A stretch of 64,000 bases of DNA from NCBI RefSeq assembly GCF_000802205.1, contig NZ_CP012850.1, positions 3,366,707 through 3,430,706 on the forward strand, read 5' to 3'. The position numbers and the translations under genes were made by a program. Source of the stretch: Candidatus Nitrosocosmicus oleophilus (GTDB lineage: Archaea; Thermoproteota; Nitrososphaeria; Nitrososphaerales; Nitrososphaeraceae). Every line of letters starts with the position of its first letter. Position 1 is the first letter of the stretch. This document shows, piece by piece, positions 2,793-21,281 of the stretch. The notes below the pieces were generated by a model. It worked only from the letters and a program-made list of their open reading frames with translations. It made no database searches and was not told the DNA's origin.

Positions 2793-2823
2793 TGCGAAGT
2801 GCGGGATTTGAACCCGCGATCCC
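2793..2823 (-). repeat. tRNA-Gly 3'-end fragment (T arm plus acceptor), copy 1
   Basis: These 31 bp equal the 3' end of the intact tRNA-Gly at 21207-21281 (discriminator, acceptor 3' strand, full T stem-loop and variable bases), in the same minus orientation. No D arm or anticodon arm follows. The fragment sits about 70 bp before the promoter of the first exported alpha/beta hydrolase. Tyrosine-recombinase attachment sites typically use this part of a tRNA, but no integrase is visible in the window. Confidence 0.8.
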
Positions 2824-2894
2824 TTTATCTTTAGCTGTTGGTTATAGAGAGGGATAATTTGGCCAAGATAATCTTCTTACAACACTTCACCCTC

Positions 2895-2902
2895 TTTATA
2901 TA
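2895..2902 (+). promoter_or_regulatory. TATA box of hydrolase A
   Basis: TTTATATA lies in a stretch (CACCCTCTTTATATACT) conserved at all three paralogous hydrolases. The box centre is about 26 nt before the ATG at 2924, the expected spacing for leaderless archaeal transcription, and no Shine-Dalgarno motif precedes the ATG. Confidence 0.7.
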
Positions 2903-2923
2903 CTTCCTCGAGTGAAATTGCAT

Positions 2924-3961
2924 ATGTATAGTTATAGTAAGATAAGAAAAGATCATCTTTTCATGGTTGCAATAATATCAACTCTAATTTTCTCAAGTAT
3001 GACTATGGGCAATGGCTTTACTAATATAGTAAATGGTCAAACAAATACTACCCAAGCAAACTCCACCAATAATGTTACGGGCTTGGTAAATACACAATAC
3101 ATTCCAATTCAAAAAGTCCACGTTGGAGATATTGAAATGGCATACAAGATGTTTGGTAAAGGAGACCCTATTTTGCTTATCAGTCCTGCACAGGCCGATA
3201 TGAATTACTGGGAACCTTCCCTCATAGATACTCTTTCTGCAAATCACACGATAATTGTATTTGACAACCGCGGAGTTGGAAACACTTCCACTGGTATAAA
3301 GCCGTTCTCCATCCAACAATTTGCTAATGATACTGCTGGTTTACTAGACGCTCTGAAAATACAAAAGGCAGATGTTCTTGGCTATTCACTGGGTTCTTTC
3401 ATAGCTCAACAGCTTGCCGTTACACATCCAGACAAGGTTAACAGACTTGTGCTTATTGCTACAACATGTGGTGGAAAAGAGAGTATTCCTCCTAGTCCTG
3501 AACCTCAAAAAAGGGTTATTGATGTTATAAATAGAATTGCAAATGATACGCCTGTCACTTCGCAGGAAGTAAAAGCACTTCTGTCTGATGGCTTGGGATC
3601 AGGATGGCTCAAACTGCATCCCAATTTCCTTGAAACCATACCTATCCCAGAAGTAAAAGATCTGTTCCCTAGTATTACTCCTGATAATAATTTAAAGCAG
3701 TTCAAAGCAGCACTAGACTGGGAGGCATCTAATTGGAATGGGGTTTGCGATGAGCTTAGAAAAATATCAATACCAACACTGATCATAACTGGAACCGATG
3801 ATATAATCCCAACGCAAAATGCATTAATTATTGCAGGAAAGATCCCTGGAGCCTGGCTTATACAGATAAAAGATGCTGGCCATGCAATACCGATTCAATA
3901 TCCGGCGGAGGTTGCTGAGATATTAAATACATTTCTAACGACTACTAGCCCAAACAATTGA
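2924..3961 (+). CDS. Exported alpha/beta-fold hydrolase, paralog A (345 aa)
   Basis: This is a serine hydrolase of the alpha/beta superfamily with the nucleophile elbow GYSLGS (Ser about residue 155), an acid near GTDDI and a C-terminal catalytic His in DAGHAIP (about 320). The N-terminus is an export signal or anchor (FMVAIISTLIFSSMTMG) followed by an Asn/Thr-rich linker with glycosylation sequons, so it works outside the cell. The ATG at 2924 is chosen because the conserved TATA box is about 26 nt upstream; a GTG at 2912 would place the start too close. The usual HG oxyanion motif is replaced by SPAQAD, unlike its paralogs at 4234 and 20066, suggesting a different substrate or altered activity. 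The substrate is unknown. Confidence 0.8.
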   Translation: MYSYSKIRKDHLFMVAIISTLIFSSMTMGNGFTNIVNGQTNTTQANSTNNVTGLVNTQYIPIQKVHVGDIEMAYKMFGKGDPILLISPAQADMNYWEPSLIDTLSANHTIIVFDNRGVGNTSTGIKPFSIQQFANDTAGLLDALKIQKADVLGYSLGSFIAQQLAVTHPDKVNRLVLIATTCGGKESIPPSPEPQKRVIDVINRIANDTPVTSQEVKALLSDGLGSGWLKLHPNFLETIPIPEVKDLFPSITPDNNLKQFKAALDWEASNWNGVCDELRKISIPTLIITGTDDIIPTQNALIIAGKIPGAWLIQIKDAGHAIPIQYPAEVAEILNTFLTTTSPNN

Positions 3962-4024
3962 ACAGCCATTGAATGAAGCATTTGGTTATCTAATTAACTT
4001 ATCCTGATTAGATTGTAGACAAGG

Positions 4025-4079
4025 GGGTTCAAATCAATCTCAAAAAGGTGCGAAGTGCGGGATTTGAACCCGCGATCCC
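4025..4079. repeat. tRNA-Gly 3'-end fragment (copy 2) with upstream inverted T-arm
   Basis: The 31-bp tRNA-Gly 3' fragment lies at 4049-4079 (minus orientation). At 4025-4035 GGGTTCAAATC is the exact reverse complement of GATTTGAACCC at 4061-4071, giving an 11-bp inverted repeat with a 25-nt spacer. A further half copy follows (GTTCAAATCCCG, then CCGCGATCCC near 4130), so this unit holds a partly doubled fragment compared with copy 1. Confidence 0.75.
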
Positions 4080-4204
4080 TTCGCTTTATTGTAAAGTTCA
4101 AATCCCGAAAATAAAGAATGAGAATCCGCGATCCCTCTATCTTTAGTTATTGGTCACAGAGATGGATAATTTGATCGATAGTGTTCACACAAGACTTCAC
4201 CCTC

Positions 4205-4212
4205 TTTATATA
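4205..4212 (+). promoter_or_regulatory. TATA box of hydrolase B
   Basis: TTTATATA sits in the same conserved context as at 2895 and 20037, centred 26 nt before the ATG at 4234. This spacing implies a leaderless transcript and rules out the longer frame that opens at 4150, because that frame would contain the promoter. Confidence 0.7.
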
Positions 4213-4233
4213 CTCCGTCGAGTGACAGTGGTT

Positions 4234-5265
4234 ATGAATAATAGTAGACAGGTAAGAAAAGGCTATCTTTTCATTATAGTATTCATTTCTGCTATAATTT
4301 TCTCAAGTATGACTATGGGCAATGGCTTTACTAATACAGTGAACGGTCAAACAAATGCTACTCAGGCCAATTCAAGCAATACTAACAATTTGGTAAATAC
4401 ACAAGACATCCCATTAGAAAAAGTCCGTGTTGGAGATATTGAAATGGCATATAAAATGTTTGGTAAAGGTGATCCCTTGATACTTCACAATGGTGCTTCT
4501 GATAACATGGATGCTTGGGATCCAGCCCTTCTCACTAGGCTAGCATCAAATCACACAGTAATTATTTTTGATAGTCGTGGAATCGGAAATACCACTGCAG
4601 GGACCGAGCCATATTCTATACAATTACTTGGTAATGATACTGCTGGTTTAATGGATGCTTTGAAAATACAAAAAGCAAACGTTCTTGGATATTCTTTGGG
4701 TACATACATAACGCAACAATTTGCAATTACGCATCCTGATAAGGTTAGTAGTATTATACTTATTGCTGGTTCCTGTGGTGGGAAAGATGGTATACCTCGA
4801 CCTGCTGAGTTTGACAAATTACAAGCAGATATTGTAAACAAAACCCAAAATAATATACCTGTATCTCAGGATGAACTGAAGTCGCTTGTAACGGCCTCAT
4901 TAGGACCGGGTTGGATAAAACTACACCCAGAATCTGCAGCGATTCCAGAAAACATTACATTCCAGCAAATGAAACCTAGTGTTTCACCTGAAACATTGAA
5001 TAATCAGAAGAACGCTGGATTTGCTTGGGTGGCTTCCGACTGGAATGGTGCTTGTGACGACCTTGCAAAGATAAACAAGCCTCTGTTAGTTATAGCAGGA
5101 ACAGACGATAATCTCTACGTCCCGCATGAAAACTCTTTGGTCATTGCAAATAAAGTTCCAGGAGCCTGGCTAGTACAGATAAAAGATGCTAGTCATGCCG
5201 TTCCTGATCAATATCCAGAGGAAGTCGGTAAAATAATAGAAACATTCTTGTCGACTATAAAGTAA
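4234..5265 (+). CDS. Exported alpha/beta-fold hydrolase, paralog B (343 aa)
   Basis: Closely related to the genes at 2924 and 20066: signal segment (YLFIIVFISAIIFSS), Asn/Thr-rich linker, nucleophile motif GYSLGT, acid region AGTDDN and catalytic His in DASHAVP. The region before the nucleophile (LILHNGASDNMDAW) differs from both paralogs in the oxyanion loop. The start follows the leaderless promoter rule. It is flanked on both sides by tRNA-Gly 3' fragments (4049 and 5349), so gene plus fragment form a repeated unit. Expected location is the cell surface; the substrate cannot be read from sequence. Confidence 0.8.
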   Translation: MNNSRQVRKGYLFIIVFISAIIFSSMTMGNGFTNTVNGQTNATQANSSNTNNLVNTQDIPLEKVRVGDIEMAYKMFGKGDPLILHNGASDNMDAWDPALLTRLASNHTVIIFDSRGIGNTTAGTEPYSIQLLGNDTAGLMDALKIQKANVLGYSLGTYITQQFAITHPDKVSSIILIAGSCGGKDGIPRPAEFDKLQADIVNKTQNNIPVSQDELKSLVTASLGPGWIKLHPESAAIPENITFQQMKPSVSPETLNNQKNAGFAWVASDWNGACDDLAKINKPLLVIAGTDDNLYVPHENSLVIANKVPGAWLVQIKDASHAVPDQYPEEVGKIIETFLSTIK

Positions 5266-5324
5266 AGGTGACCAAGCAGGAAAGAAGAATCCGACATTAA
5301 TTTTTGTACACCATCTTGACAAGC

Positions 5325-5379
5325 GGGTTCAAATCAATCATAAAAAAGTGCGAAGTGCGGGATTTGAACCCGCGATCCC
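5325..5379. repeat. tRNA-Gly 3'-end fragment (copy 3) with inverted T-arm, no hydrolase after it
   Basis: GGGTTCAAATC at 5325-5335 and GATTTGAACCC at 5361-5371 have the same spacing as in copy 2. The 31-bp tRNA fragment is at 5349-5379. After it the unit decays: a TTGCTTTATTGTATGGTTC stretch resembles the other units, but no promoter or hydrolase follows. The DNA from 5400 to 5699 holds no gene I can support. This is either a broken unit or the place where foreign DNA interrupted the array. Confidence 0.75.
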
Positions 5380-5699
5380 TTTGCTTTATTGTATGGTTCA
5401 AATCCCAAAAATGAAAGAGGAAATCCAGTGATTCCATGTCCGCAACAATTCCTATATTATAACTAAGATATTAACTGAATATTGTCTTTGGTTGAACGTT
5501 CTTTCAAGAAATGTTATCTCTGTTTTTGAGGAATAACATAGAACGAAAGACAAAGGTAAAAGATCTTTCGGAGTATGATAAGCAGCCAAGGCCATATGCC
5601 GACTAATTCTTGTAACAAAATTCATTAAACTTTTACCACATTAATTATTTAATGTAAATTCTGGAGAATGCTTAACTATCTTTTATGGGGTTTCTTTTC

Positions 5700-6003
5700 A
5701 TGAAATTTGAAGCTAAGGTTATGATTCTATCCACTTTGTTGATTTTAATCTCAGTTAGTTTATCAAGTATCGGATATACATTTGCTCAATGAGGTGATTA
5801 TTTAGGTCAAAATGAAGATGCTAATGAAGCATCTCAAAGTAAATCAAGTTTCAGAAACTAATCAAAATAGTATGTGTGTATTGGATAAAAGCACATCTCT
5901 TAGTTGTAATAATTTATCAGGTCAGAGGATTGGTTCCGGTCAACAGGGTGAACCAGGACCAGGATCGCAGGTCAAGTTTGCCCGAGCAGGGCGAGGACCA
6001 TAA
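5700..6003 (+). pseudogene. Disrupted exported collagen-like protein gene
   Basis: An ATG at 5700 opens a clean signal peptide (MKFEAKVMILSTLLILIS ending TFAQ), but TGA follows at 5790-5792. The same frame continues GDYLGQNEDANEASQSK to another stop. A different frame then carries a Cys-containing stretch and a collagen-like GQQGEPGPGSQ segment to TAA at 6001-6003. One nonsense change and one frameshift would explain this. Gly-x-Pro-type exported proteins are known from soil Nitrososphaeria, so this is probably a decayed family member. Confidence 0.5.
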
Positions 6004-6123
6004 CAATCGAATATTTTCATCAATTAGTATGTCGAAAAGATTTACTTTGTCTTAAATTATTAGAGTATTAGAGTATTAGAATCTATGACAAAATCTCAAA
6101 TACTTCTACCATGTTAAATTATT

Positions 6124-6792
6124 ATGGATATTACAAATCATATCCAAAATAGTACAAATCCGTGGCATAAACAAATTACTAAACAAGGCCTTGTTAATTT
6201 AAAGATAGTATCGATTAGTATTATCGCAATACTACTAACCATTGTACTGATTTCAGGTTCAATAGTATCATCAAATGTTTTTGCAGCAAAAAGTCCCTCT
6301 CCAAGAGATGTTTGTAATGTATTTTCAGGTGGTACTTGTTCTTGTGGTAATAACATTGAGGACCTTACTGCAACATGTTGTACGGTTACGCCCGGTTCAA
6401 CTCCCGGAAATGATATAATGATATGTGAACGATGTTCTATCAACACTAATACTGGTGAAAATTATAACTGTGAAGTTAGTCGAAAATCGCCAACAACAGG
6501 TGAAACAAACTTTCCTAATAATGAAGGTATATTAGAACAACCGTCACAAAAACATAATCCAAAAGATAATGCCAAAGTTCCAAACAATAATGGGGTTATA
6601 GAACAAAATTCTATATTGTCTAACAATCCAACATCCAATCAAAACAATCCTAAACAATTACAGCAAACTAATAATGAACAATTAGCAAAAAGCAGTAACA
6701 ATAACAATAAAGATAATTCACCAACATCTCCTCCTTGCCCAAATAAAGGACCAATACCTCCTAACTGTACACTAAAACCTATCTTCAAGTAA
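6124..6792 (+). CDS. Exported cysteine-rich protein with Asn/Gln-rich tail (222 aa)
   Basis: The N-terminus has a transmembrane/signal segment (about residues 28-52, ending NVFAAKSPS). It is followed by a cysteine-rich module starting SPRDVCNVFSGGTCSCG with further CC, CERC and NCE cysteines, and then an Asn/Gln/Pro-rich low-complexity tail. The SPRDVC module recurs in the frameshifted gene at 7396-7861, and a related cysteine layout occurs at 7866-8372, so three paralogs cluster here. The disulfide-rich head and flexible tail suggest a secreted structural or binding protein. I do not recognise a named family. Confidence 0.65.
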   Translation: MDITNHIQNSTNPWHKQITKQGLVNLKIVSISIIAILLTIVLISGSIVSSNVFAAKSPSPRDVCNVFSGGTCSCGNNIEDLTATCCTVTPGSTPGNDIMICERCSINTNTGENYNCEVSRKSPTTGETNFPNNEGILEQPSQKHNPKDNAKVPNNNGVIEQNSILSNNPTSNQNNPKQLQQTNNEQLAKSSNNNNKDNSPTSPPCPNKGPIPPNCTLKPIFK

Positions 6793-6981
6793 TGGAGTTT
6801 TAAATCTATATTATGTTAAGACTGCCATTTTGCTAATGAGAGATGAATTAGAATTGAATTTTACGAAAAGTTTGAGTGATTGTATCCAATGATAAGTTGA
6901 ATGTTTAATTTTGGAGATGATTATGTTAATTTGCTCTCTTATCCCCCAACTACCTCTATATAATAAAAGTAATTCTCCATC

Positions 6982-7256
6982 GATGGCTACAAGTTTTATC
7001 CAATTCCAATAGATATACATTTGGGAATAATCAAAATCCCTACTGAAGAGATTTTAGATGATTTTGGGATAAACACTACTGAAACTGTGATAGTGGGAAC
7101 TGACAGACGAGATGTTCGTAATTAGTTACAAGAACACTTTGCAAGGGACTTTCTTAGATATGGTAAATTAAAGAACCAGAAATTAGACATCTGGACTACA
7201 AAACTAAACAAGGGTGGTCAAGGAAGAGAAGACATATCAAGACTGAGCCTAGTTGA
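6982..7256 (+). pseudogene. Disabled second copy of the small protein at 362
   Basis: The frame from about 6982 aligns with residues 13 onward of the gene at 362 (PIPIDIHLGIIKIPTEEILD), with TAG at 7123-7125 where the intact gene has an Arg codon. After GKLK a frameshift moves the rest (HLDYKTKQGW) to another frame, ending TGA at 7254-7256. No intact start was found. It is a clear non-functional paralog on the same strand 6.6 kb away. Confidence 0.7.
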
Positions 7257-7395
7257 GAAATTGAATCGTGGTCTTAAAATTCTAAATCAAACTCACTTTA
7301 ATAACATACAAATGTCCTTTCTGTTGTATCGATTTAATTAGGTGGAGTCTCTCTACCCTCTCATGATACACCATTCGACTCTACTACTGGTTTGA

Positions 7396-7861
7396 TCAGT
7401 TATTATCCTCATTAAATGTACCCGTTGTTGTAGTAGTATTATCGAAATTACTTCCTTTGTCAAAATTGTGTTCTCCTCCTCCTTCTTGTTCAAAGATTCC
7501 ACCTACAGTATTGTTATCTGGAAGATCTGTCTGGCTAGGGAATTTAATACTATCTTCTGGATGGCAATTAATATAGTCACCCGTTGTAAGATCTATATCA
7601 CATATATCACAATATTGGCGTCCAGAGTTATCATTAGTGCAACATCTTGCGTTACCTTCTGTAGTTAAAGAATCACACCGACATAGATATTGGTTAATTT
7701 TACATACATCTCTAGGTGATCTTTTTTTCTGCAAGGGCGCCCGATACCAAAGAACTTGAAATCAATCCGATAGTTATCATGATTGTTATAGTGACCGTCA
7801 TCATCGGTATCAGAGAATTATTTTGGGTTGGCTTAATTTTCCTGAAGGATTTCATTTTCAT
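7396..7861 (-). pseudogene. Exported cysteine-rich protein gene with a frameshift in an A7 run
   Basis: Minus-strand ATG at 7861 begins MKMKSFRKIKPTQNN, followed by a hydrophobic signal segment ending SGALAEK. The frame then breaks at a run of seven A (7722-7728). Removing one A joins it to SPRDVCKINQYLCRCD, a cysteine module like that at 6124, followed by CCTN, CDICD and a Thr/Asn-rich tail to the stop at 7396. The lesion could be a true frameshift, slippage-dependent expression or a homopolymer sequencing error. The gene directly follows the exported paralog at 7866 and is probably co-transcribed with it. Confidence 0.6.
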
Positions 7862-7865
7862 CAAC

Positions 7866-8372
7866 CTATTGATTGAATACTCCACCATTGTTGTTGGGGT
7901 CTATCCCTTTTGAATTGTCTTGATTGCTAGACTCACTATTATCGTTAAAGGTTCCACCTGTAGATGGGTCTATCCCTTTTGGAAGATCTGAGTTGCTTGA
8001 ACCATCATTATCACTTAAGACTCCGCCACTGTCTTTAGGATTGGTAGTATCACCGCCTTTGTCTTCTCTAACAGGATAAGCGGGTCCGCAGTTGCTCGGG
8101 GGGTGCGTATTGTCACATTTGGTACACCAGCCGTTAGTTGTACCAATTTCATGTGCACAACATACCACTTTACCTATTGTTCCACTATCTGGAATACGAC
8201 CGCAATTATAAGGAGTCATATTTCGTGCATCACTATGACCAACAATTGATGCACTTGTGAGGAGAATAATTGGAATCAAAACTATATTAAGATTGTTAAA
8301 AGAGTGGTTTGGGGAATTGTTAATTCCTTCATGTTTGGTGTCATCAAAAAGATAATATATAAATATTGCCAA
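7866..8372 (-). CDS. Exported cysteine-containing protein with repeated acidic tail (168 aa)
   Basis: A hydrophobic segment (NIVLIPIILLTSASIVG) suggests export. A small cysteine module follows (PYNCGRI, VVCCAHE, WCTKCDN, NCGPAYP). The tail repeats a unit of the type GIDPSTGGTFNDNS / GIDPNNNGGVFN and is rich in Asn, Ser, Asp and Gly. The layout matches the paralogs at 6124 and 7396. The start is uncertain: ATG at 8372 is the only in-frame ATG, yet an AT-rich TATA-like stretch lies inside the first codons. The function is not recognised. Confidence 0.6.
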   Translation of the reverse strand: MAIFIYYLFDDTKHEGINNSPNHSFNNLNIVLIPIILLTSASIVGHSDARNMTPYNCGRIPDSGTIGKVVCCAHEIGTTNGWCTKCDNTHPPSNCGPAYPVREDKGGDTTNPKDSGGVLSDNDGSSNSDLPKGIDPSTGGTFNDNSESSNQDNSKGIDPNNNGGVFNQ

Positions 8373-9063: not shown

Positions 9064-9079
9064 AAGTCATCCAGGCAAA

Positions 9080-9262: not shown

Positions 9263-9268
9263 AGTTGA

Positions 9269-10543
9269 TTGACTTTTATTCTAACAATCATTGTTTGTTT
9301 ATATATAGCAGGTTTATTGCTATTGTTAATGCTTTTAATAAGATTTAAGCGAAAACCCTTGATAGTTTTAGGTATATTTTTTGGTATTTTCTTAATTTTG
9401 TCAGCATATTTATCGTCGTTTGGTTCATCTGTATTTCAAAATGCGTTGGCACAGTCTGATATTCAAACGGTCAAATATAGAAACCTAACACTAGATCTTG
9501 GTAACGGAATAACTACTAATGCTCAGTTATCTTACCCCGCCATAGGTAAAGGCCCATTCCCAGCGGTGTTACTTATTCCTGGCTCAGGTGCGGTAGACAT
9601 GAATGAAACCTTGACTATAGATACTAAACCATTCTGGCAGATATCTCAATATCTTTCCGAGAGGGGATTTGCGGTACTAAAGTTTGATAAAAGAGGTGTA
9701 GGTGAAAGTTTTACTATTTTAAACCCAAATGTATGGGGAAATAATACCGTCAATGATCAAATTCAAGATAGCAAAAAAGCCTTGAATGTTCTCGTACAGC
9801 AGCCTGAAGTAGATCCAAATAGGATAAGCATAATTGGTCATAGCGAAGGTACATTGTATGCTCCAAGAGTAGCAGTGGATAATTCGACAAAGGTAAGCAA
9901 CATTATACTTATGGGTGTCCTAGCTCAAAACCCTTTAAAAGATGTAGAGTACTATCAAGACGTTTCATTGCCATTGGAATACGCTATGCAAGTATTAGAT
10001 AGTAATAACACGGGATTGATATCCGTAGGACAAATAGTAACAGATTCTTTATTAAAGAACTTTTTATTACCTTCTTCTCTTTTGCATACTAATGATACCA
10101 AAGAGATAACTAATGCGTTAATGAAGGAATTTGGTAGTAGTGGGTTCATAAATATTGATGAACAACTTAAACCCTTTCTGATAAAGGGGTACGAAAACAT
10201 AACAGCATTTAATTTGCTAAAATGCGATACTACTGGAGTATGTCCGATCCTATGGAAGTCTTTAGCTGATATGCCAACGAATTTGAGCTTTATTGGTAAC
10301 GTATCTAACTCTACTGGCATTCTAATACTTAATGGAGAAAATGATGCTCAAACACCAGTTCAACAAGCATTTTTATTGCATCAGAAGCTTAATGAAGTAA
10401 ATCATACTGATCACACATTAATGACTTACACCGAACTAGGACATGTTTTTTATCCATCATCAAAATGGCAAACAGTGGTAGGACCTATTCAACCTAATGT
10501 TTTGGCAGATCTATATTCATGGTTGGAGTTACACTCAAGATAA
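9269..10543 (+). CDS. Membrane-anchored alpha/beta hydrolase of the dienelactone-hydrolase/BAAT type (424 aa)
   Basis: Two hydrophobic stretches at the N-terminus (about residues 1-25 and 30-55) precede an extracellular hydrolase domain. The nucleophile motif is GHSEG, the oxyanion region is LLIPGSGAVDMNE, the acid lies near LNGENDAQTP and the catalytic His in ELGHVFYP. This is the architecture of exported acyl-hydrolases acting on esters or peptides. It is not a close copy of the three tRNA-linked hydrolases. The frame opens at TTG 9269; a later start inside the first hydrophobic stretch is possible. It overlaps the edge of the propeller relic on the other strand. Confidence 0.75.
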   Translation: MTFILTIIVCLYIAGLLLLLMLLIRFKRKPLIVLGIFFGIFLILSAYLSSFGSSVFQNALAQSDIQTVKYRNLTLDLGNGITTNAQLSYPAIGKGPFPAVLLIPGSGAVDMNETLTIDTKPFWQISQYLSERGFAVLKFDKRGVGESFTILNPNVWGNNTVNDQIQDSKKALNVLVQQPEVDPNRISIIGHSEGTLYAPRVAVDNSTKVSNIILMGVLAQNPLKDVEYYQDVSLPLEYAMQVLDSNNTGLISVGQIVTDSLLKNFLLPSSLLHTNDTKEITNALMKEFGSSGFINIDEQLKPFLIKGYENITAFNLLKCDTTGVCPILWKSLADMPTNLSFIGNVSNSTGILILNGENDAQTPVQQAFLLHQKLNEVNHTDHTLMTYTELGHVFYPSSKWQTVVGPIQPNVLADLYSWLELHSR

Positions 10544-10891
10544 GCTCGTTTCAATTTTGTCTATTTTTAATGCATCTATTCATTAATAATGGCACAAAAC
10601 AAATTATCGAAACTTCTGCTGGTTCGATCCTTGCTCGGGATCACGGATGAACCGCTCTATTTGAACCCGAGATTTTACAGATTATTAAAAATCAACAATT
10701 AAGGATTATGTAGATTAGTTGAGTGTTTAATTTGCTAACCTAAAGAAAGTCTTTTTGAAGCAATAAAGATCTTCGGTAAAATGAAGGACTAATCGAATCA
10801 ATATTTTTCAACCGATTCTCTGGAATACTAAGATACATAAAAAAGTATGAAAATTTGTATAGGTTATAATTCCTATATTTATTTCAATAAA
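10544..10891. other. Intergenic stretch, nothing supported
   Basis: AT-rich DNA without a defensible frame. A short T-arm-like string (CTGGTTCGATCC) and a TATTTGAACCCGAGAT stretch occur at 10619-10673 but do not fold into a tRNA by eye. They may be further decayed tRNA-derived fragments. Confidence 0.4.
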
Positions 10892-11179: not shown

Positions 11180-11380
11180 TAACTTTTCATGAATAAAAGA
11201 ATATATAAACTTATATTAAATATTCAGAAAATTGTATTTATATTAAAAGTATGACATTATAATTTAACTTTTATTGAATTATCAAATTTATTTTAATTAA
11301 ATATTAAAAGAATAGAGATAGATGTGTAGTTCATTGAAGTAACAATTCTACCTGGTTTTATTAAATCCATAAACAAAAGG

Positions 11381-11441
11381 TGCGAAGTGCGGGATTTGAA
11401 CCCGCACTTCGTTTACCTTAACCAGGCTGGGCCAACCTCGC
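11381..11441 (-). pseudogene. tRNA-Gly pseudogene lacking the anticodon arm
   Basis: The segment matches the intact tRNA-Gly at 21207-21281 at both ends: the acceptor/T-arm (GATTTGAACCC core) and the 5' half with D arm (AGGCTGGGCCAACCTCGC). The anticodon arm and variable region are replaced by about 8 bases, so it cannot make a tRNA. Homology continues past the tRNA into the neighbouring gene, which shows that a chromosomal block was copied, not just an attachment core. Confidence 0.8.
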
Positions 11442-11490
11442 TTGAAATAAAATTAATCAAGCGGTATTAATAACTTAATGCTGTGCACTG

Positions 11491-11573
11491 CTACTTGCAA
11501 CTATTCCATATTTTCCCTTGTCTAAAGGCAATTTTTCTAGCAGAACTAATATCACGAATTCCACCTCTTTCCA
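11491..11573 (-). pseudogene. 3' end fragment of the RNase H-fold gene at 21329
   Basis: The last 25 or so codons are duplicated: RGGIRDISSARKIAFRQGK followed by IWNSCK and TAG at 11491-11493. One residue differs from the intact gene. Spacing to the tRNA pseudogene matches the original locus. The remnant stops abruptly at about 11573, the breakpoint of the duplication. Confidence 0.75.
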
Positions 11574-11698
11574 AAAATAGAACTGTAGATAGATATAGAC
11601 CCCTAGCTCCCAAATCTATTTAATTTTTCAAGGGACTAATTATTACATGTGGCTGAAAATGGAACTCATAATGTGAATACCCAATTAGTCAAATCATG

Positions 11699-15789: not shown

Positions 15790-16022
15790 ATTGTCATCCT
15801 ATTTCAATCATTACTTATAATATGTGTAGCCAACTAATCAATCACAATACTCAATTGGGGTCTGTTAGATACTTATAATTTCTTTAAATTATTATTCATG
15901 TAGGAATGTTCGTCACGTCATGAACTATCTCTATTCTAAAATATTAAAATTCATGTTCGTTGTGTTTTACCAAAAGAACATCCAGTCTAACATCTTTATA
16001 ACCTTTAATGTATAGTCTCAAT

Positions 16023-16895
16023 ATGGCTACGACACTTAATAACGGTAGTCGTCTATTTGGAGAAATTGAAAATATAAGAATTTCTGATATTCATTTACCA
16101 TCTAATAACCTGAGAATTTCAAATAGTCTAAATATTGAAAAAATAGCAAATTCGATTAGGCAACATGGACTTTTGCACCCGCTTGTAGTAAAACCAAGGT
16201 CAAATCATTTTGAAATAGTAGCTGGGTACAGAAGGTTTCTGGCATGCAAATCTTTACACTGGAAGAAAATCCCTTGTCATATTGCCAATTTAGACGATAT
16301 GCAAACATTTGAAGTCGCAATGGTCGAAAATATACGTCGAAAATCATTCACGCCTCTTGAAGAAGCAAACGCGTTTAAAATATATGTTTCTGATAAAGGT
16401 TGGGGAGGTGTAACAGATTTATCCAATAGAATAGGCAGAAGTCCGAGCTCAATAATCAGGAGAATTGGACTTCTTGATTTACCCGAAGATGTACTAGATA
16501 GTATTAAGAGGTCAGAGTTAAGCCCAAGTACTGCTGCGGAGTTATTTCGGGTCAAAGATCCAATAAAGCAGTCTCACTTAGCAAAACTTGTCGCCCGTCA
16601 GCATTTAACTACAAAAAAAGTAAGAAGAATTGTAAGTAATGACTTGTTATCAAATAATCCATCAGATTCTGAAACACGAAGCCAACTACGAGCATTTGAT
16701 AAATCAATAATTGTATTAAGGGTTGCTTTAAATAAAATAGCCACCATCATGGATGAGGAAAATAAAGATGATTTGTTAATTCAGGAACTACTCCTATACC
16801 AGAGAAACATACTTCATAATCAAATAGGGATTCTCTTAAAATGTAAAAAGAAGTATGAAAAGAAAATATTGCGGTACCGCAATCATATTAAATAA
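16023..16895 (+). CDS. ParB/Spo0J-family protein (290 aa)
   Basis: The N-terminal ParB/sulfiredoxin-like domain carries the C-motifs typical of the family: GLLHPLVVKP, GYRRFLACKSL (box with the CTP-binding Arg residues) and VAMVENIRRKSFTPLEEA. A helix-turn-helix region follows (LSNRIGRSPSSIIRRIGLL). The last 80 residues are basic and partly helical. ATG 16023 is preferred because CTTTATAAC lies about 26 nt before it, giving a leaderless start; ATG 16008 is in frame too. No ParA gene is adjacent. It may act in chromosome or plasmid segregation, or as a DNA-bound regulator. Confidence 0.85.
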   Translation: MATTLNNGSRLFGEIENIRISDIHLPSNNLRISNSLNIEKIANSIRQHGLLHPLVVKPRSNHFEIVAGYRRFLACKSLHWKKIPCHIANLDDMQTFEVAMVENIRRKSFTPLEEANAFKIYVSDKGWGGVTDLSNRIGRSPSSIIRRIGLLDLPEDVLDSIKRSELSPSTAAELFRVKDPIKQSHLAKLVARQHLTTKKVRRIVSNDLLSNNPSDSETRSQLRAFDKSIIVLRVALNKIATIMDEENKDDLLIQELLLYQRNILHNQIGILLKCKKKYEKKILRYRNHIK

Positions 16896-17346
16896 TATAT
16901 TTAATCATCAGTCGTTGTCCTATGAATGTATGATTGTGATTGTGTTAAAGTTTTGGAAATCTCATTCAAATATTCTATGATGGATTTAACATTTTATTTA
17001 TGGGATAATCCCTTATATAAGTAACAATATTTCATTTATAGAAATGGAACAATGACTGGGCTTAGTCAAATGATTTTATCCTTCTTAATAAAGGATTCAA
17101 TATCTTCGACATTCTACCTATAGCTTTGCACTATTCTTAACTAGTTTTTTGAAAAAGAGATGGATTAAAGATGACAAACTGGATGCACAATAACTTCCCA
17201 CAGTTCGGATCAATCAAATAAAGATGATACTTGCTAGTCTTTTGTCAATTTAGTGAATTTGACACGGCTAAAAGATTGGTTAACAGATAATCATGATTTG
17301 CAGCTCCACTTCAAATCTACTATTTTTTATCAATCTGATCCATTCA
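16896..17346. other. Intergenic stretch, nothing supported
   Basis: About 450 bp of AT-rich DNA between the convergent parB-like and chaB-like genes. I see no reliable frame, RNA fold or parS-like palindrome in it by eye. Confidence 0.35.
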
Positions 17347-17607
17347 TCAATCATCTTTCTTAACCCATTCATCACCCTTTTTCTCGTATTCCTTTTTTAC
17401 AGCAGACCATGCTACCTTGTGGGCGACTTCTTCAGCAGACACCTTTTTACCTTCTCTTCTTTTATCTGGATCTTTATATTCTTTAATTGCACTGGCATGA
17501 GCTTTTTTGAATATATGTTGTGCGTGTTTTGGCAAGTCATCTATTCTTTTCTCTGTTGCTTCTGATAATCCACTATCATCATTATTTTTCCTATTAGCCA
17601 TATTCAT
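17347..17607 (-). CDS. ChaB-like small basic protein (about 86 aa)
   Basis: The protein matches the ChaB pattern: LPKHAQHIFKKAHASAIKEY near the N-terminus, then AEEVAHKVAWSAVKKEYEKK and a charged end (WVKKDD). ChaB was named for a link with a cation antiporter in E. coli; its biochemical role is not settled. The frame runs further upstream, but the hydrophobic extension is unlike the family and AT-rich, so the ATG at 17607 (or 17601, MANRKNND) is preferred. It is monocistronic here. Confidence 0.7.
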   Translation of the reverse strand: MNMANRKNNDDSGLSEATEKRIDDLPKHAQHIFKKAHASAIKEYKDPDKRREGKKVSAEEVAHKVAWSAVKKEYEKKGDEWVKKDD

Positions 17608-17901
17608 TACTGGATAAAAAAAGATAAAAACGGCATCAAAAAAAATAACCTTTTGTGTAGATCTATCTATAAAAATTAACAGCATGGGAAAATGAGATAA
17701 TCACATGCACTAATGCATTAGCATTAGAAATTCATTTAGAAAATAGGTACCAATTGCCAAAGTTATTAGCATGAATGGATTATATTTCAATAAATCTCTA
17801 TTTGTCTGGAATTATTAAGATCATCGTTTAGTAATGTCTTAGTCGAGATTTCGATTCGTTTACCAAAGATTATTTCATTACCATCAACTAACACTTGTTA
17901 G

Positions 17902-18000
17902 ATGACCGGTTCAGTTACACTAAGAACACCGTTTATGATACGAAAGTTTGACAAAATTGATGATTTTATAAAGATAATTTTTCCAGACATCGAATCATAA
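17902..18000 (+). CDS. Possible 32-aa peptide or N-terminal relic
   Basis: A frame from ATG 17902 to TAA 17998-18000 reads MTGSVTLRTPFMIRKFDKID and ends FPDIES. It is followed at once by an ATG that soon hits a stop, and then by the open but startless stretch at 18033-18266. The pieces may be parts of one decayed gene. Evidence that the peptide itself is made is weak. Confidence 0.2.
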   Translation: MTGSVTLRTPFMIRKFDKIDDFIKIIFPDIES

Positions 18001-18032
18001 ATGAAGAAACAATTACTATCAAATATGCATAG

Positions 18033-18266
18033 GTCCAATTAGACACTAAGTTATATTCTGAATTAGAAAGGAATCTCAAACTGTTTATTGTTAAAATATA
18101 CACCAAGGATCTTGATAATTATATTAGAAAAGAAACAAGACATGCTAGCAAAGAAGATATAAAAGATTCGCTTCTATCAACTATTTCAATTACTCTGAAC
18201 GTTCGTGATGAATCTAGTCGAAAGTTAAGTAAAAATGCTATTTATTTTCGCTTAGAAAGATCATAA
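18033..18266 (+). pseudogene. C-terminal relic of an unknown gene
   Basis: A 77-codon open frame without a start codon reads LDTKLYSELERNLKLFIVKI and ends KNAIYFRLERS at TAA 18264-18266. Its composition is protein-like (charged, helical), and a stop lies just upstream. It is probably the remains of a gene that extended into 17900-18030. The rest of 17608-18434 shows no supported feature. Confidence 0.35.
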
Positions 18267-18434
18267 ATAATACCAAATTATGCTCTACTAACCAGTAATG
18301 GATCCTTACTGGTATTCAATAAGATTAGTGTAACAATAAAACTTGAAAATACGTCAATTGGATTGAGAAAAGCACAAACAAACGCATGCAACAGAATATG
18401 TTCATCTTAAATAGTTTTATGTAAAGGTTACATC

Positions 18435-18935
18435 ATGCCGATAGATCCAGAATTTCCAAAAAATCATCAAGTGATCGGAAAGCATTCAACTTCAGATGGA
18501 GATTATCTTCATTTGGTGTGGGGTCCAGGAAGGTCAGATGCAGAATCGTCAACAAATAAAGAAGTTCAGGAAGCATACAAAGCCAGAGGAGAGGAATATG
18601 TCCCATTGGGTGTTCATGGCACATTTGTAGCAGTAGATTGGGACTCGTGTATCTCGGATGGAGCTTGTATAGAAGCCTGTCCCGTACAAGTCTATCAATG
18701 GTATAGGTCAGAACAAGATGTTCCAGCCATAGAGATGGCAAACGCCACAAGTGAAGGGACTGGGGATGATCACAGCAGGGAAGGAAGAAAAGATTATACT
18801 GATAAACCAGATCCTATCAGAGAGAAGGCATGTATATGGTGTATGGCCTGCGTGACTGTATGTCCTACGACTTCCATCAAAGTCGATGAGGCGAACCTGC
18901 CAATTCATGAGGAGGAAGCAAAGAAATTTTCCTAG
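18435..18935 (+). CDS. Zinc-type 7Fe ferredoxin (166 aa)
   Basis: Two iron-sulfur motifs are visible. CISDGACIEACP has Asp in place of the second Cys, as in [3Fe-4S] sites. CIWCMACVTVCP is a complete [4Fe-4S] motif. The long N-terminal part contains His residues (NHQVIGKHSTSDGDYLHL, GVHGTFVAVDW) in the arrangement of the zinc-binding extension of Sulfolobus-type ferredoxins. Such proteins carry electrons for 2-oxoacid oxidoreductases and related enzymes in the cytoplasm. The length exceeds the Sulfolobus protein because of an insertion between the two motifs (about residues 96-130). It stands as a single gene. Confidence 0.9.
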   Translation: MPIDPEFPKNHQVIGKHSTSDGDYLHLVWGPGRSDAESSTNKEVQEAYKARGEEYVPLGVHGTFVAVDWDSCISDGACIEACPVQVYQWYRSEQDVPAIEMANATSEGTGDDHSREGRKDYTDKPDPIREKACIWCMACVTVCPTTSIKVDEANLPIHEEEAKKFS

Positions 18936-19310
18936 GTATATCTTGGCTAAATAAAGACTGAAAGAAAAGTTTCTACTCATCAGCAATTGGTACTCATCGA
19001 TTAAAGTCTACCACTATTGGTTAACTATTCATTTATTTACTTTAACATCTCGTTTTCAGAAAAACAAGATACACCTATATTAACAGTCTTTATTATTCAT
19101 AGTCAGTATCCAAATTAGAAACGATAATACTGTATGTTACTTTATTAAATATCGATAATTAATCGCGGCCCTTAGGCCCCTAATGTCATACTATATTATA
19201 ATATTGATTACATCCGTTTGCAAATAAACACATCATCTTTATATCTGGCCCCTCTTAACATATGATTGCCTTTGAATAGCAAGGTTGCATAGCTTACTTA
19301 CTCGGTGAGA

Positions 19311-19356
19311 ATAGTAACGGTCTATATTTCCTTGGTTGGGTAGAAACCGTTACTAT
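19311..19356. other. 11-bp inverted repeat in a gene-free stretch
   Basis: ATAGTAACGGT at 19311-19321 and ACCGTTACTAT at 19346-19356 are exact reverse complements with a 24-nt spacer. The pair could be an RNA hairpin or a dimer-binding DNA site. The surrounding 18987-19853 has no protein gene I can support. Confidence 0.45.
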
Positions 19357-19702
19357 CCTTCTTCAGTATACTCAATTAATACACTATAATGTTCCCCATT
19401 TATCCCAGACTTATCTACATATTTATTTGACGAAAAGTGTATTTTATATTCATTAACATTCTTAAAGAATTCATTCACTTGTTTGTTTTCTGATTCGATT
19501 TAATTGTCTTTTCTTTCATTATATTCCATACTGTCAAAGTAGCAATATATGAAACTGCTGTCATAACTATTTGTATACTGACTGGTCATCTAGGCATGTA
19601 CGATATGTGGAACCAACACAAATCCTAGACTTGCTCTATGGTTATTGCTTTAAATATAAAGGTTATTTGGTCGTTATCAACAAAATGACTGATACCACAT
19701 AA

Positions 19703-19764
19703 TGCGTGGCCCTAAAGATGGATAAAGGCCACGCACAGGTACAACGAGTCCGGATTAAGGACTC
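19703..19764. ncRNA. Possible structured RNA with two adjacent hairpins
   Basis: TGCGTGGCC (19703-19711) pairs with GGCCACGCA (19727-19735), nine bp with a 15-nt loop. Ten bases later GAGTCC (19746-19751) pairs with GGACTC (19759-19764) around a 7-nt loop. The stems are far more GC-rich than the surrounding DNA, as expected for a stable RNA in an AT-rich genome. Strand and function are unknown. It could equally be a decayed tRNA-like element. Confidence 0.35.
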
Positions 19765-19853
19765 CTAACTTGGTCAATGCATCTACTACAATAAACCTGA
19801 AGACAGTCCACTATCTTCTAGTGCCTAAATTGTAAACATAATTGTAAACATTC

Positions 19854-19909
19854 GGGTTCAAATCAATCTCAAAAGAAGTGCGAAGTGCGGGATTTGAACC
19901 CGCGATCCC
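19854..19909. repeat. tRNA-Gly 3'-end fragment (copy 5) with upstream inverted T-arm
   Basis: GGGTTCAAATC at 19854-19864 is inverted relative to GATTTGAACCC at 19891-19901. The 31-bp tRNA fragment spans 19879-19909. The following bases (CGCTGTATTGTAAAGTTC and a second CCGCGATCCC near 19960) match the unit at 4049, including the doubled half copy. The unit leads into hydrolase C. Confidence 0.75.
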
Positions 19910-20036
19910 TTCGCTGTATTGTAAAGTTCAAATCCCGATAATAAAGAATGAGAACCCGCGATCCCTTTATCTATAGTTATTGATTATAGAGAGGGATAAT
20001 TTGACCAAGATAGTCTTCACACAAGACTTCACCCTC

Positions 20037-20044
20037 TTTATATA
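20037..20044 (+). promoter_or_regulatory. TATA box of hydrolase C
   Basis: TTTATATA in the conserved CACCCTCTTTATATACTCC context, centred 26 nt before ATG 20066. It is the third instance of the same promoter cassette (others at 2895 and 4205). Confidence 0.7.
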
Positions 20045-20065
20045 CTCCCTCGAGTGAATTTGGTT

Positions 20066-21106
20066 ATGAATAATAATAGACAGATAAGAAAAGGCTATCT
20101 TTTCATTATAGTATTCATTTCTACTATAATTTTCTCAAGTACAAGTATGATTAACGGCTTTACTAATACAGTTAACGGTCAAACAAATGCTACTCAGGCC
20201 AACTCCACTAATAATGTTACCAATTTGGTAAATACACAAGACATTCCAGTTGAAAAAGTCCGTGTTGGAGATATTGAAATGGCGTACAAGATGTTTGGTA
20301 AAGGTGACCCTATTTTGCTTATTCAGGGTGTTGGTGGGTCTATGGATAGTTGGGAACCATCTATTTTAAGAGACCTATCCTCAAATCATACTGTAATAAT
20401 ATTGGATAATCGTGGAGTTGGAAATACAACAACTGGTACAAAACAATTCTCAATTCAGCAATTTGCAAATGATACTGCTGGTTTACTTGACGGTCTGAAG
20501 ATTCAAAAAGCAAACGTTCTTGGGTATTCTATGGGTTCACTTATAGCTCAGCAGTTTGTTCTTACTCATCCTGAGAAGGTCGACAGACTTGTACTTATTG
20601 CTTCAACATGTGGTGGAAAAGATAATGTACCTAATAGCCCTGAAGTTTTAGAACTGGCTAAAAAGCTCCTAAGTAGTGTTGTAAATAACACTTCAATAGA
20701 ACCACAGGAAGTAAAAGCGGCTGTAGCTCTCAGCTACGGACCAACATGGATCAAACTTCATCCCGATATCCTTGAAAGCATTCCCACAAACGCCAAAGAT
20801 TTGCTACTTTCTGGTATGGGTCCTGATACTTATATACAACAGGAGAAAATAACACAAAACTGGAAGTCAACCAACTGGAGTGGCGTATGTAGTCAGCTTC
20901 CAAATATAGCCAAACCTACCTTGGTAATAACTGGAACTGAAGATGTTACTATACCAGCTGCTAATTCTTTAATTATTGCGGAAAAAATCCCTGGAGCATG
21001 GCTTGTACAGATGAAAAATGCAGGTCATCAAATTACGTCACAATATCCGGATGAGATTGGTAAAATATTAAATACATTTCTATCGACTACTAGCCCAAAC
21101 AATTGA
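20066..21106 (+). CDS. Exported alpha/beta-fold hydrolase, paralog C (346 aa)
   Basis: The layout is the same as at 2924 and 4234: signal segment (GYLFIIVFISTIIFSS), Asn/Thr-rich sequon-bearing linker, nucleophile motif GYSMGS, acid near GTEDV and His in NAGHQIT. The oxyanion region LIQGVGGSMDSW is the most canonical of the three. The C-terminus TTSPNN and the 3' flank are nearly the same as in paralog A, so A and C share a recent common unit. The gene ends 100 bp from the intact tRNA-Gly and reads towards it. Confidence 0.8.
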   Translation: MNNNRQIRKGYLFIIVFISTIIFSSTSMINGFTNTVNGQTNATQANSTNNVTNLVNTQDIPVEKVRVGDIEMAYKMFGKGDPILLIQGVGGSMDSWEPSILRDLSSNHTVIILDNRGVGNTTTGTKQFSIQQFANDTAGLLDGLKIQKANVLGYSMGSLIAQQFVLTHPEKVDRLVLIASTCGGKDNVPNSPEVLELAKKLLSSVVNNTSIEPQEVKAAVALSYGPTWIKLHPDILESIPTNAKDLLLSGMGPDTYIQQEKITQNWKSTNWSGVCSQLPNIAKPTLVITGTEDVTIPAANSLIIAEKIPGAWLVQMKNAGHQITSQYPDEIGKILNTFLSTTSPNN

Positions 21107-21206
21107 CTAGCCATTGAATGAAGCATTTGGCTATCTAATTAACTTATCCTGATTACAATGTAGACAAAGGGGTTCAAATCCTCTATTTATACATAGAAAT
21201 TAGAAG

Positions 21207-21281
21207 TGCGAAGTGCGGGATTTGAACCCGCGATCCCGAGCTTGGGAAGCTCGTACCTTAACCAGGCTGGGCCAACCTCGC
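21207..21281 (-). tRNA. tRNA-Gly (anticodon CCC)
   Basis: A 75-nt cloverleaf reads on the minus strand. Acceptor GCGAGGT pairs with ACTTCGC (one G-U); D arm GGCCCAGCCTGGTTAAGG; anticodon stem CGAGC/GCTCG with loop TTCCCAA gives anticodon CCC; T stem GCGGG/CCCGC with loop TTCAAAT; discriminator A. CCA is not encoded and there is no intron. Fragments of this gene's 3' end are scattered through the preceding 18 kb. A GGGTTCAAATC string at 21170-21180 is inverted relative to its own T arm. Confidence 0.95.

What the first reader, a model, noticed from the sequence alone, without database searches (positions are those of the whole stretch)
2793..21281. tRNA-Gly 3'-end fragments act as junctions of a dispersed hydrolase array
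One intact tRNA-Gly(CCC) at 21207-21281 has at least four partial copies (2793, 4049, 5349, 19879) of the same 31-bp 3' end in the same orientation, plus a larger damaged copy at 11381. Three fragments are followed by the same leaderless promoter and a paralogous exported hydrolase. The 3' flanks of hydrolases A and C are also alike, so the repeating unit is fragment + promoter + hydrolase + flank. The material between 5.4 and 19.8 kb looks like an insertion into the array. tRNA 3' ends are classic recombinase targets, yet no integrase is present. This may be a tRNA-anchored gene amplification system.
Basis: partly seen in the sequence, partly recalled or inferred. Interest (0 to 1): 0.85.

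Follow-up and report, generated by a model that had tools for sequence, protein, structure and literature searches.

The report
tRNA-anchored gene-cassette array in archaea
In one genus of ammonia-oxidizing archaea, a tRNA gene is followed by a run of small, mostly single-gene DNA cassettes separated by copies of that tRNA's end; the cassettes were likely inserted, lost and reshuffled by a virus-type integrase whose gene lies at the same tRNA in sister species but was not found in this genome.

Summary
tRNA-Gly(CCC) (21206-21281, minus strand) has 32-36 bp perfect copies of its 3' end at 2791, 4047, 5347 and 19877, a damaged larger copy at 11379, and more copies outside the window. A whole-genome pattern search gives 13 matches (tRNA included), all in one orientation within 70 kb on the tRNA's 3' side. 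Copies were seen in 13 of 15 genomes of the genus; among the listed matches in 55 other genomes of the family, only one doubtful MAG shows a series. The copies separate cassettes: 27 of 39 short intervals hold exactly one ORF of 100 aa or more. The exported hydrolase is only one of several recurring families. Cross-species alignments end at the copies far more often than chance; one 1.3-kb cassette is present or absent between species; cassettes A and C stand in swapped order. An SSV-type integrase, intact or decayed, lies at this tRNA or an array fragment in 6 sister genomes, not in this one. In one genome an array lies inside another integrated element. Best reading: repeated integration in the tRNA T-arm, giving an integrase-less, integron-like array; a new variant of tandem island accretion. 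Trans-mobilization of mini-cassettes is inferred, not shown.

The parts
21206..21281 (-). intact tRNA-Gly(CCC): anchor and presumed attB (T-arm); the array lies on its 3' side (lower coordinates)
   Evidence: 3' side differs between genomes while the 5' side is conserved
19877..19909 (+). tRNA-Gly 3'-end fragment, 33/33, left border of cassette C
19877..21204 (+). cassette C: fragment + inverted T-arm + TATA-like box + exported alpha/beta hydrolase (ORF from 20054 or 20066 to 21106)
   Evidence: 91% identical to a cassette of G012 that lies in another context; Pfam Abhydrolase_1
2791..2823 (+). tRNA-Gly 3'-end fragment, 33/33, left border of cassette A
2791..4046 (+). cassette A: fragment + TATA-like box + hydrolase (ORF from 2912 or 2924 to 3961); lacks the ~54-bp micro-insert of B and C
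   Evidence: 90% identical to a G012 cassette
4047..4079 (+). tRNA-Gly 3'-end fragment, 32/33, left border of cassette B
4047..5346 (+). cassette B: fragment + micro-insert + TATA-like box + hydrolase (ATG about 4234 to 5265)
5347..5379 (+). tRNA-Gly 3'-end fragment, 33/33, right border of B and left border of the next segment
11379..11565 (+). damaged copy of the tRNA-Gly locus: 3' end + palindrome in place of the anticodon arm + 5' end + 5' flank; a similar copy is in G002
17913..19157 (+). ferredoxin cassette relic (ferredoxin ORF 18435-18935), 92% identical to part of a fragment-bounded cassette of G005
9269..10543 (+). second hydrolase family (fam4), a recurring cassette family in other species
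291..323 (+). degenerate tRNA-Gly 3'-end fragment, 20/33
10644..10676 (+). degenerate fragment, 20/33, perhaps of a second repeat class
21329..21979 (-). conserved gene on the 5' side of the tRNA (DUF460 match below its cut-off): the fixed flank of the locus
   Evidence: same family beside the tRNA in 13 contigs; 5' side conserved; Pfam

Best explanation
The fragments are most likely attachment-site scars left by repeated site-specific integration into the T-arm of tRNA-Gly(CCC), probably by an SSV-type tyrosine integrase, and the DNA between them is a set of likely mobile cassettes, mostly of one gene, that would move in trans. Shown: in this genome the fragments lie only on the 3' side of the tRNA and in one orientation; their left edge is the tRNA 3' end; alignments between cassettes of different contexts end at fragments far above chance; one cassette is present in one species and absent in another between two fragments; cassette order differs between species; a PF16795 integrase or its relic lies at this tRNA, or at an array fragment, in six sister genomes. 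Inferred: each insertion gives the tRNA a new 3' end and leaves the former one as a fragment on the far side of the cassette, so that a fragment was a working tRNA end until the next insertion; the crossover lies in or next to the T-loop (GGGATTTGAACCC); mini-cassettes without integrase are excised and inserted by the integrase of a helper element; in the window genome the array is now without its own integrase.
For: (1) Own genome: 13 forward (tRNA included), 0 reverse, 0 control, all within 70 kb on the 3' side; inverted double T-arm pattern: 4 palindromic sites, all in the array region, control 0. (2) Of 78 pairs among 13 tRNA loci, the 5' side aligns (score >200) in 63 and the 3' side in 1; ungapped identity runs 0-2 nt past the tRNA 3' end in 63 of 78. 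(3) In 66 non-tRNA fragments conservation begins at the tRNA 3' end and falls after the T-stem. (4) Right ends of alignments fall at +10..+45 of a fragment in both sequences in 36 of 286 cases; 200 shifted controls, mean 0.02, max 1. (5) Filled and empty site: a 1301-bp hydrolase cassette in G002 is absent in G012; the left junction aligns at 133 of 144 bases, the right side for about 97 bp before it diverges. (6) A 51-bp micro-insert sits exactly in the fragment in one of two near-identical stretches of G014. (7) Cassettes A and C are 90% and 91% identical to G012 cassettes that stand in the opposite order. (8) 27 of 39 intervals up to 3 kb hold exactly one ORF of 100 aa or more; ORF orientation in these intervals is constant in most recurring families (fam2 9/9, fam8 6/6, fam5 6/6 in one genome, fam4 4/4, fam13 3/3). 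(9) Integrase: 8 places at 48% identity or more in 15 genomes, 5 at tRNA-Gly(CCC) and 2 at an array fragment; SSV-type by Pfam, a source's own name and, weakly, fold. (10) The same search with tRNA-Ala(CGC) shows no series of 3'-end copies in the same 15 genomes. (11) A 21.6-kb segment between 54-bp tRNA-Glu repeats in G004 contains a second array.
Against: The own genome has no match to the tRNA-Gly integrase, so recombination here cannot be shown to go on now. Among alignments of 85% identity or more only 2 of 24 right ends and 0 of 25 left ends sit at fragments in both sequences; most alignments end elsewhere. The alignments are not independent (the same cassettes recur). Mismatches in the fragment's left half rise only moderately with distance from the tRNA (rho 0.41, p 0.016, n 35; own genome alone rho 0.47, p 0.056, n 17). 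Of all 54 intervals, 15 are longer than 3 kb. Hydrolase cassette E looks chimeric (its border matches one G002 cassette, its gene another), which points to homologous recombination too. fam0 occurs in both orientations; fam4 and fam8 have one reversed member each outside the short intervals. One integrase relic of 51% identity (G003 355198) lies near another tRNA-like 3' end.
Confidence: 0.72

Rival explanations
1. Tandem duplication and deletion by homologous recombination: once one element had left a fragment beside a hydrolase, host recombination between fragments and paralogous hydrolases amplified and rearranged the array; no cassette mobility. (The rivals can act beside the best explanation, so the odds do not add to one.)
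For: A and B are neighbours and paralogous; the units A and C align over 1293 columns at 77%; E looks chimeric; no cognate integrase in this genome; duplication plus deletion could give the C-A order of G012; the missing G012 cassette is a paralogue (79%) of its neighbour.
Against: Unrelated genes stand in the same kind of unit; fragments are 32-33/33 identical between units whose genes differ by dS 0.67-1.26; precise 51-bp insert; 3' side of the tRNA differs between species in 77 of 78 pairs.
Confidence: 0.17
2. Decay of large integrated elements: several ~18-20 kb plasmid- or virus-like elements inserted at the tRNA one after the other and shrank by deletion; the small units are left-overs, never mobile by themselves.
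For: G002 has an 18.4-kb segment between a tRNA copy and the tRNA with a primase-helicase and the integrase; G003 has a 19.1-kb interval that holds an integrase relic; G001 a 2.2-kb interval with an integrase relic.
Against: Small units recur with the same gene, orientation and similar size in different contexts; purifying selection on A and C (omega 0.31, 0.32).
Confidence: 0.3
3. The fragments are kept as functional elements (terminators, insulators or RNA-processing sites) of the genes beside them.
For: Near-perfect conservation of several copies; T-arm hairpins and flanking inverted T-arms.
Against: They lie beside genes on either strand; many are decayed; tRNA-Ala gives no such set; the right half varies.
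Confidence: 0.06

Closest known systems
Dehalococcoides ssrA genomic islands and cis-mobilizable elements by accretion (PMC3146451; passages and section 5 read)
   Same: tandem units downstream of one RNA gene, bounded by direct repeats of its 3' end (20 bp), within 100 kb; insertion in the T-loop; 15 of 31 islands without an integration module; paralogous enzyme genes (rdhA) as cargo
   Different: there a bacterial tmRNA and a serine recombinase (DsiB); here an archaeal tRNA-Gly and an SSV-type tyrosine integrase, units often of one ORF (39 of 54 intervals up to 3 kb, 27 of these with one ORF), seen in 13 of 15 genomes of a genus
Integrons and integrase-less CALINs, also reported in Archaea (PMC9668308; passages read)
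   Same: runs of mostly single-gene cassettes between same-strand recombination sites; arrays without integrase
   Different: site is a tRNA T-arm, not attC; the integrase is SSV-type (PF16795); the anchor is a working tRNA gene; cassette genes lie on both strands and the hydrolases carry their own TATA-like box
Thaumarchaeal integrated mobile elements (PMC6563490; start of abstract, passages, section 7 read)
   Same: 3'-end tRNA integration by tyrosine integrases is usual in this phylum (39 of 68 sites in tRNA genes)
   Different: that survey describes mostly multigene elements (its cryptic elements 2.6-98 kb); the main text has no 'tRNA-Gly' and names the Nitrosocosmicus strain MY3 once, for IS5 copies; its supplements were not seen
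Additive genomic island at tRNA-Lys, and tycheposons, in Methylophilaceae (PMC10872708; passages read)
   Different: bacterial; no single-gene cassette structure described in the passages read
SSV1-type archaeal integrase
   Same: PF16795 domain; best solved folds are XerA and the SSV integrase catalytic domain (E 0.006, none at 0.001 or better)
   Different: the gene stays whole after integration (open frames whose called start lies 127-181 bp from the tRNA or fragment), so not the suicidal type

Membership tests
tRNA/tmRNA-targeted tandem accretion (ssrA-GI / CIME type) | same-orientation repeats of the RNA gene's 3' end, only downstream of it | tested here: met
   own genome; sister contigs were oriented by their fragments, so only those with several count
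tRNA/tmRNA-targeted tandem accretion (ssrA-GI / CIME type) | target gene stays intact; its 3' side is variable, its 5' side conserved | tested here: met
tRNA/tmRNA-targeted tandem accretion (ssrA-GI / CIME type) | presence/absence breakpoints lie within the repeat | tested here: met
   (far above chance overall; 2 of 24 and 0 of 25 in the alignments of 85% identity or more)
tRNA/tmRNA-targeted tandem accretion (ssrA-GI / CIME type) | cognate integrase in at least some units at the site | tested here: met
   met in six sister genomes, not in the window genome
tRNA/tmRNA-targeted tandem accretion (ssrA-GI / CIME type) | excised circular form | not testable with these tools
   needs reads or PCR
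Integron | IntI-type integrase with the array | tested here: not met
   site integrase is PF16795 SSV-type; the only PF00589 protein of the own genome lies by tRNA-Ser(GCT), 0.9 Mb away; no IntI-specific model was run
Integron | attC sites with GTTRRRY cores (definition recalled) | tested here: not met
   repeat core is GTTCAAATCC, which breaks GTTRRRY; only the sequence was compared
Integron | mostly single-gene cassettes, same-strand sites | tested here: met
   27 of 39 short intervals with one ORF of 100 aa or more
Integron | promoterless cassettes read from one promoter | tested here: not met
   families on both strands; the window's hydrolases have their own TATA-like box; no transcript data
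SSV-type (PF16795) integrase | catalytic domain | tested here: met
   34.1 bits, cut-off 27; PHROG integrase; folds 4a8e, 3uxu, 3vcf at E 0.006-0.024, none at 0.001 or better; conserved R, K, R, H, Y columns (their role is recalled)
SSV-type (PF16795) integrase | suicidal: gene split by integration | tested here: not met
   whole open frames beside tRNA or fragment in G002, G012 and G013

The most novel reading that the evidence does not exclude
An archaeal counterpart of the integron that arose independently: a working tRNA gene is the insertion platform, its T-arm is the recombination site, a virus-type integrase is the enzyme, and single-gene cassettes, many with their own promoter, are captured, stored, reordered, and shipped as whole arrays inside other integrative elements.
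Probability: 0.4. Interest if true: 0.85.

Novelty: new variant of a known kind. Interest (0 to 1): 0.62.

Why it matters
If right, a genus of soil ammonia oxidizers keeps a gene-capture locus at one tRNA, comparable in architecture to integrons but built from other parts. It would give a direct route by which these archaea collect exported hydrolases, ferredoxins and other single genes, and it makes a question testable: can an archaeal virus-type integrase move minimal cassettes in trans? It also leaves fossils of tRNA 3' ends that may help to order insertion events. The general principle (tandem accretion at an RNA gene) is known, which limits the surprise.

Tried and rejected
Considered and set aside. 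(a) Dispersed transposable repeat: rejected, since in this genome the matches lie on one strand and near the tRNA. (b) Tyrosine integrases of the PF00589 group as the enzyme: the only one in the own genome lies by tRNA-Ser(GCT); G006 and G014 have none yet have fragments. An integrase N-terminal relic 3' of tRNA-Gly in G010 lies beside what looks like a tRNA-Ser 3' end, so it is no evidence for a tRNA-Gly enzyme; a PF00589-type stretch lies about 9 kb from a fragment in G009, not followed up. (c) Serine recombinases, as in Dehalococcoides: one PF00239 match in each of 13 of 15 genomes; in the three one-contig genomes (G000, G003, G004) it lies about 0.5 Mb or more from the tRNA-Gly locus or array, in the others on another contig than the tRNA-Gly. 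(d) Viral carriers: the one hit of the 22-mer in viral contigs lies in a tRNA-His of a contig with 28 tRNAs; no hydrolase relative was confirmed in viral contigs. (e) PDB sequence search with the integrase gave no recombinase. (f) A 22/33 match near a G007 integrase (L120): inconclusive. (g) No paper describing this array was seen in the listings; term searches in the main text of PMC6563490, PMC8371274, PMC11559005 and PMC7603488 did not bring it up. The library is open-access only and no supplements were seen.

Controls: reversed pattern, shifted fragments, random positions, tRNA-Ala. Selection effects: fragments were chosen by similarity to the 33-mer, so conservation inside it is partly circular; the left edge is not. 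The scan covered fetched contigs only, and each sister contig was oriented by its fragments. ORFs are mechanical calls. The counts include the three G059 contigs. That the window itself is N. oleophilus MY3 is recalled from genome size, not shown. G059 is assigned to another genus but has fragments; I did not test whether it is a mixed MAG. Several fetched stretches were not analysed further (among them L012, L108, L169, L170, L216).


Full report
WHAT WAS CLAIMED.

CHECK. The tRNA is tRNA-Gly(CCC), 21206-21281, minus strand. BLAST against the own genome shows the four perfect copies, the gapped one at 11380, and a further perfect one outside the window. The window is the end of a single 3.43 Mb contig, G000:C1:3366707-3430706. 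A pattern search with up to three mismatches over the whole genome gives 13 forward matches (the tRNA included) and 0 reverse, and 0 for the reversed control pattern; all lie between 3318617 and 3387934, on the 3' side of the tRNA. A looser scan of the fetched 3300000-3430706 region (one 1000-base stretch left as N) finds 18 same-strand copies, counting the tRNA, and no opposite-strand copy. The hydrolases are alpha/beta hydrolases (Abhydrolase_1, E 6.6e-30 for C); the nearest solved relatives by sequence are esterases (Esterase 1 and Est1, E 2.6e-43). A fourth full copy lies upstream of the window, and a truncated end of a fifth near genome 3362300 (read).

THE GENUS. A search with the tRNA and its 5' neighbour over 15 genomes of the genus finds the locus in all 15. 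In fetched contigs, fragments other than the tRNA itself occur in 13 of the 15; none was seen in the stretches fetched of G008 and G010. G059 is a 4 Mb MAG and may be mixed, which I did not test. Exact 32-mers in the named collection give 24 stretches: several titled Nitrosocosmicus show extra fragments, and nine titled Nitrososphaera, Nitrososphaeraceae, Nitrososphaerales or Thaumarchaeota show the tRNA alone in the up to 8 kb held. As a control, tRNA-Ala(CGC) searched over the same 15 genomes shows no series of 3'-end copies: besides whole tRNAs there are two partial copies of its 5' part (G004, G011), isolated short 3'-part matches that look like other tRNAs, and cross-matches to the tRNA-Gly copies.

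THE SITE. Thirteen tRNA contigs give 78 pairs. The 5' side aligns well in 63 and the 3' side in 1, and ungapped identity past the tRNA 3' end runs 0-2 nt in 63. So the 3' side differs almost everywhere and the break is at the tRNA end. The profile of 66 non-tRNA fragments starts at the tRNA 3' end, is highest at ATTTGAA of the T-loop, and drops after the T-stem. Fragments were chosen by similarity, so the inner conservation is partly built in; the sharp left edge is not. After GAACC many fragments change, as expected if the right half belongs to the incoming DNA (inference). Inverted T-arm motifs lie within 45 nt upstream of 28 of 66 fragments (random positions 1.2%) and downstream of 22 of 66 (1.5%). 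Their role is unknown.

CASSETTES. Between neighbouring fragments I counted 54 intervals; 39 are up to 3 kb, and of these 27 hold exactly one ORF of 100 aa or more, 5 none, 7 two to four. Recurring families keep their orientation in these intervals: fam2 (the window's hydrolase) 9 of 9, fam8 6 of 6 ORFs, fam5 6 of 6 (one genome), fam4 4 of 4, fam13 3 of 3, fam11 and fam34 2 of 2 each; fam0 is mixed. Outside these intervals fam4 and fam8 each have one reversed member. Of ten array-family proteins tried, Pfam names few (a right-handed beta helix, a response regulator, a transposase domain, and a sub-cut-off match).

MOVEMENT. Alignments of 250 bp or more end at +10..+45 of a fragment in both partners in 36 of 286 right ends, against a mean of 0.02 and a maximum of 1 in 200 shifted controls; left ends at -5..+35 in 8 of 288 against a mean of 0.03. 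These alignments are not independent, and at 85% identity or more only 2 of 24 right ends and 0 of 25 left ends qualify. The clearest case is a filled and an empty site: G002 has two hydrolase cassettes, G012 has one, and the missing one spans fragment to fragment (1301 bp); the left junction aligns at 133 of 144 bases and the right side for about 97 bp before it diverges. The missing cassette is a paralogue (79%) of its neighbour, so loss by homologous recombination is possible too. In G014 two near-identical stretches differ by a 51-bp insert lying exactly in the fragment. Cassette A (90%) and cassette C (91%) of the window have orthologous cassettes in G012, where C' precedes A' directly; in the window A comes first and C lies beside the tRNA. 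The tree puts A with A' and C with C' at starred support (100/100 and 100/99), so A and C split before these species did. Both genes are under purifying selection (omega 0.31 and 0.32), and the fragments stay 32-33/33 while A-C and A-B have dS 0.67 and 1.26. Under the model a fragment was the working tRNA end until the next insertion, so young copies should be perfect. Decay of the left half with distance is in the expected direction but moderate (rho 0.41, p 0.016, n 35).

THE ENZYME. PF00589 gives one integrase in the own genome, by tRNA-Ser(GCT). PF16795 gives hits in 13 of 15 genomes, four of them directly at tRNA-Gly(CCC) and one at an array fragment. One such protein, from N. arcticus, was searched over the genus: 8 places at 48% identity or more, counting the pieces of one pseudogene as one place. 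Five lie at tRNA-Gly(CCC): open frames in G002, G012, G013 and G006 (the last cut by a contig end) and a relic in G001. Two lie at an array fragment: an open frame in G013 and a relic in G003, about 1.1 kb short of the tRNA. One short relic in G003 lies near another tRNA-like 3' end. Of six more distant relatives (36-39%) three lie by tRNA-Ala(CGC) (G003, G009, G011); ARAGORN shows no tRNA in the stretches of the other three. The own genome has none of this subfamily at E <= 0.001; it has three PF16795 matches of another kind, two of them about 0.5 and 0.8 kb from a tRNA-Glu-like 3' end. The protein is an SSV1-type integrase by Pfam, PHROGs and a source's own name; the AlphaFold model of a G013 member (mean pLDDT 78.9, pTM 0.53) finds XerA and SSV integrase first, at E 0.006 with none at 0.001 or better, a weak but consistent match.

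CARRIERS. G002 has an 18.4-kb segment between a damaged tRNA copy and the tRNA, with this integrase and a primase-helicase (Prim-Pol, D5_N): a candidate full element. In G004, about 440 kb from the tRNA-Gly, a 21.6-kb segment lies between perfect 54-bp repeats of the 3' part of tRNA-Glu(CTC), with a PF16795 match inside its right end; it contains a second run of tRNA-Gly-type fragments and cassettes. So a whole array can sit as cargo in another integrated element. That arrays travel this way is inference.

HOW IT PROBABLY WORKS. An element or a mini-cassette circle with a T-arm site recombines with the tRNA T-arm. The tRNA gets its 3' end from the incoming DNA and the old end is left beyond the cassette as a fragment. 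Repetition gives a same-strand series with the youngest unit next to the tRNA. Units without integrase depend on a helper in trans. Homologous recombination between similar cassettes adds to the shuffling (cassette E looks chimeric). All of this paragraph is inference. Integration at the tRNA as such I hold at about 0.85; that the mini-cassettes are mobile units by themselves at about 0.6.

WHAT IS KNOWN. Dehalococcoides ssrA islands are the nearest: tandem units bounded by 20-bp ssrA repeats, insertion in the T-loop, 15 of 31 without an integration module (PMC3146451, passages and section 5). Integrons with integrase-less arrays exist in Archaea (PMC9668308, passages), but the site and enzyme here differ. 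Thaumarchaeal elements commonly use tRNA 3' ends (PMC6563490, section 7). I found no description of this array in the searches named in Tried and rejected. Hence: a new variant of a known kind.

Noticed in passing
window 4018-4130, 5318-5420, 19845-19960: Inverted T-arm copies flank fragments on both sides and give a three-part inverted arrangement; single-strand folding is better than shuffles (z -2.2 to -3.8). Seen at 28 of 66 fragments upstream and 22 of 66 downstream.
   Followed up: partly
window 11379-11565; G002_C2 oriented 20577: Both genomes hold a damaged second tRNA-Gly locus in which the anticodon arm is replaced by a palindrome of the acceptor and T-stem sequence; tRNA 5' flank included.
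   Followed up: partly
L073 and L178 (G004 1385151-1406844): 21.6-kb segment between 54-bp tRNA-Glu(CTC) repeats with an SSV-type integrase match, carrying a second tRNA-Gly-type cassette array as cargo.
   Followed up: partly
window 17913-19157: Ferredoxin region 92% identical to part of a fragment-bounded two-gene cassette of G005 (91% to G059), but without its own borders here.
   Followed up: partly
window 16008-16895: ParB-like protein (ParB_N and HTH_ParB) within the 5.4-19.9 kb segment, possibly from a plasmid-like element.
   Followed up: no
L084 (G010), 3' of tRNA-Gly: Decayed integrase N-terminus beside what looks like a tRNA-Ser 3' end, shortly after tRNA-Gly.
   Followed up: partly
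L083 (G009:C16), oriented 4087-5360: PF00589-type integrase stretch about 9 kb from a tRNA-Gly fragment.
   Followed up: no
L110 (G034:C6): Several pieces of the middle or 5' part of a tRNA-Gly-like gene on one contig of another genus; ARAGORN finds no tRNA there.
   Followed up: no
L107 2354-2959: ORF with an IS240-type transposase domain (PF13610) in the far part of the array region.
   Followed up: no
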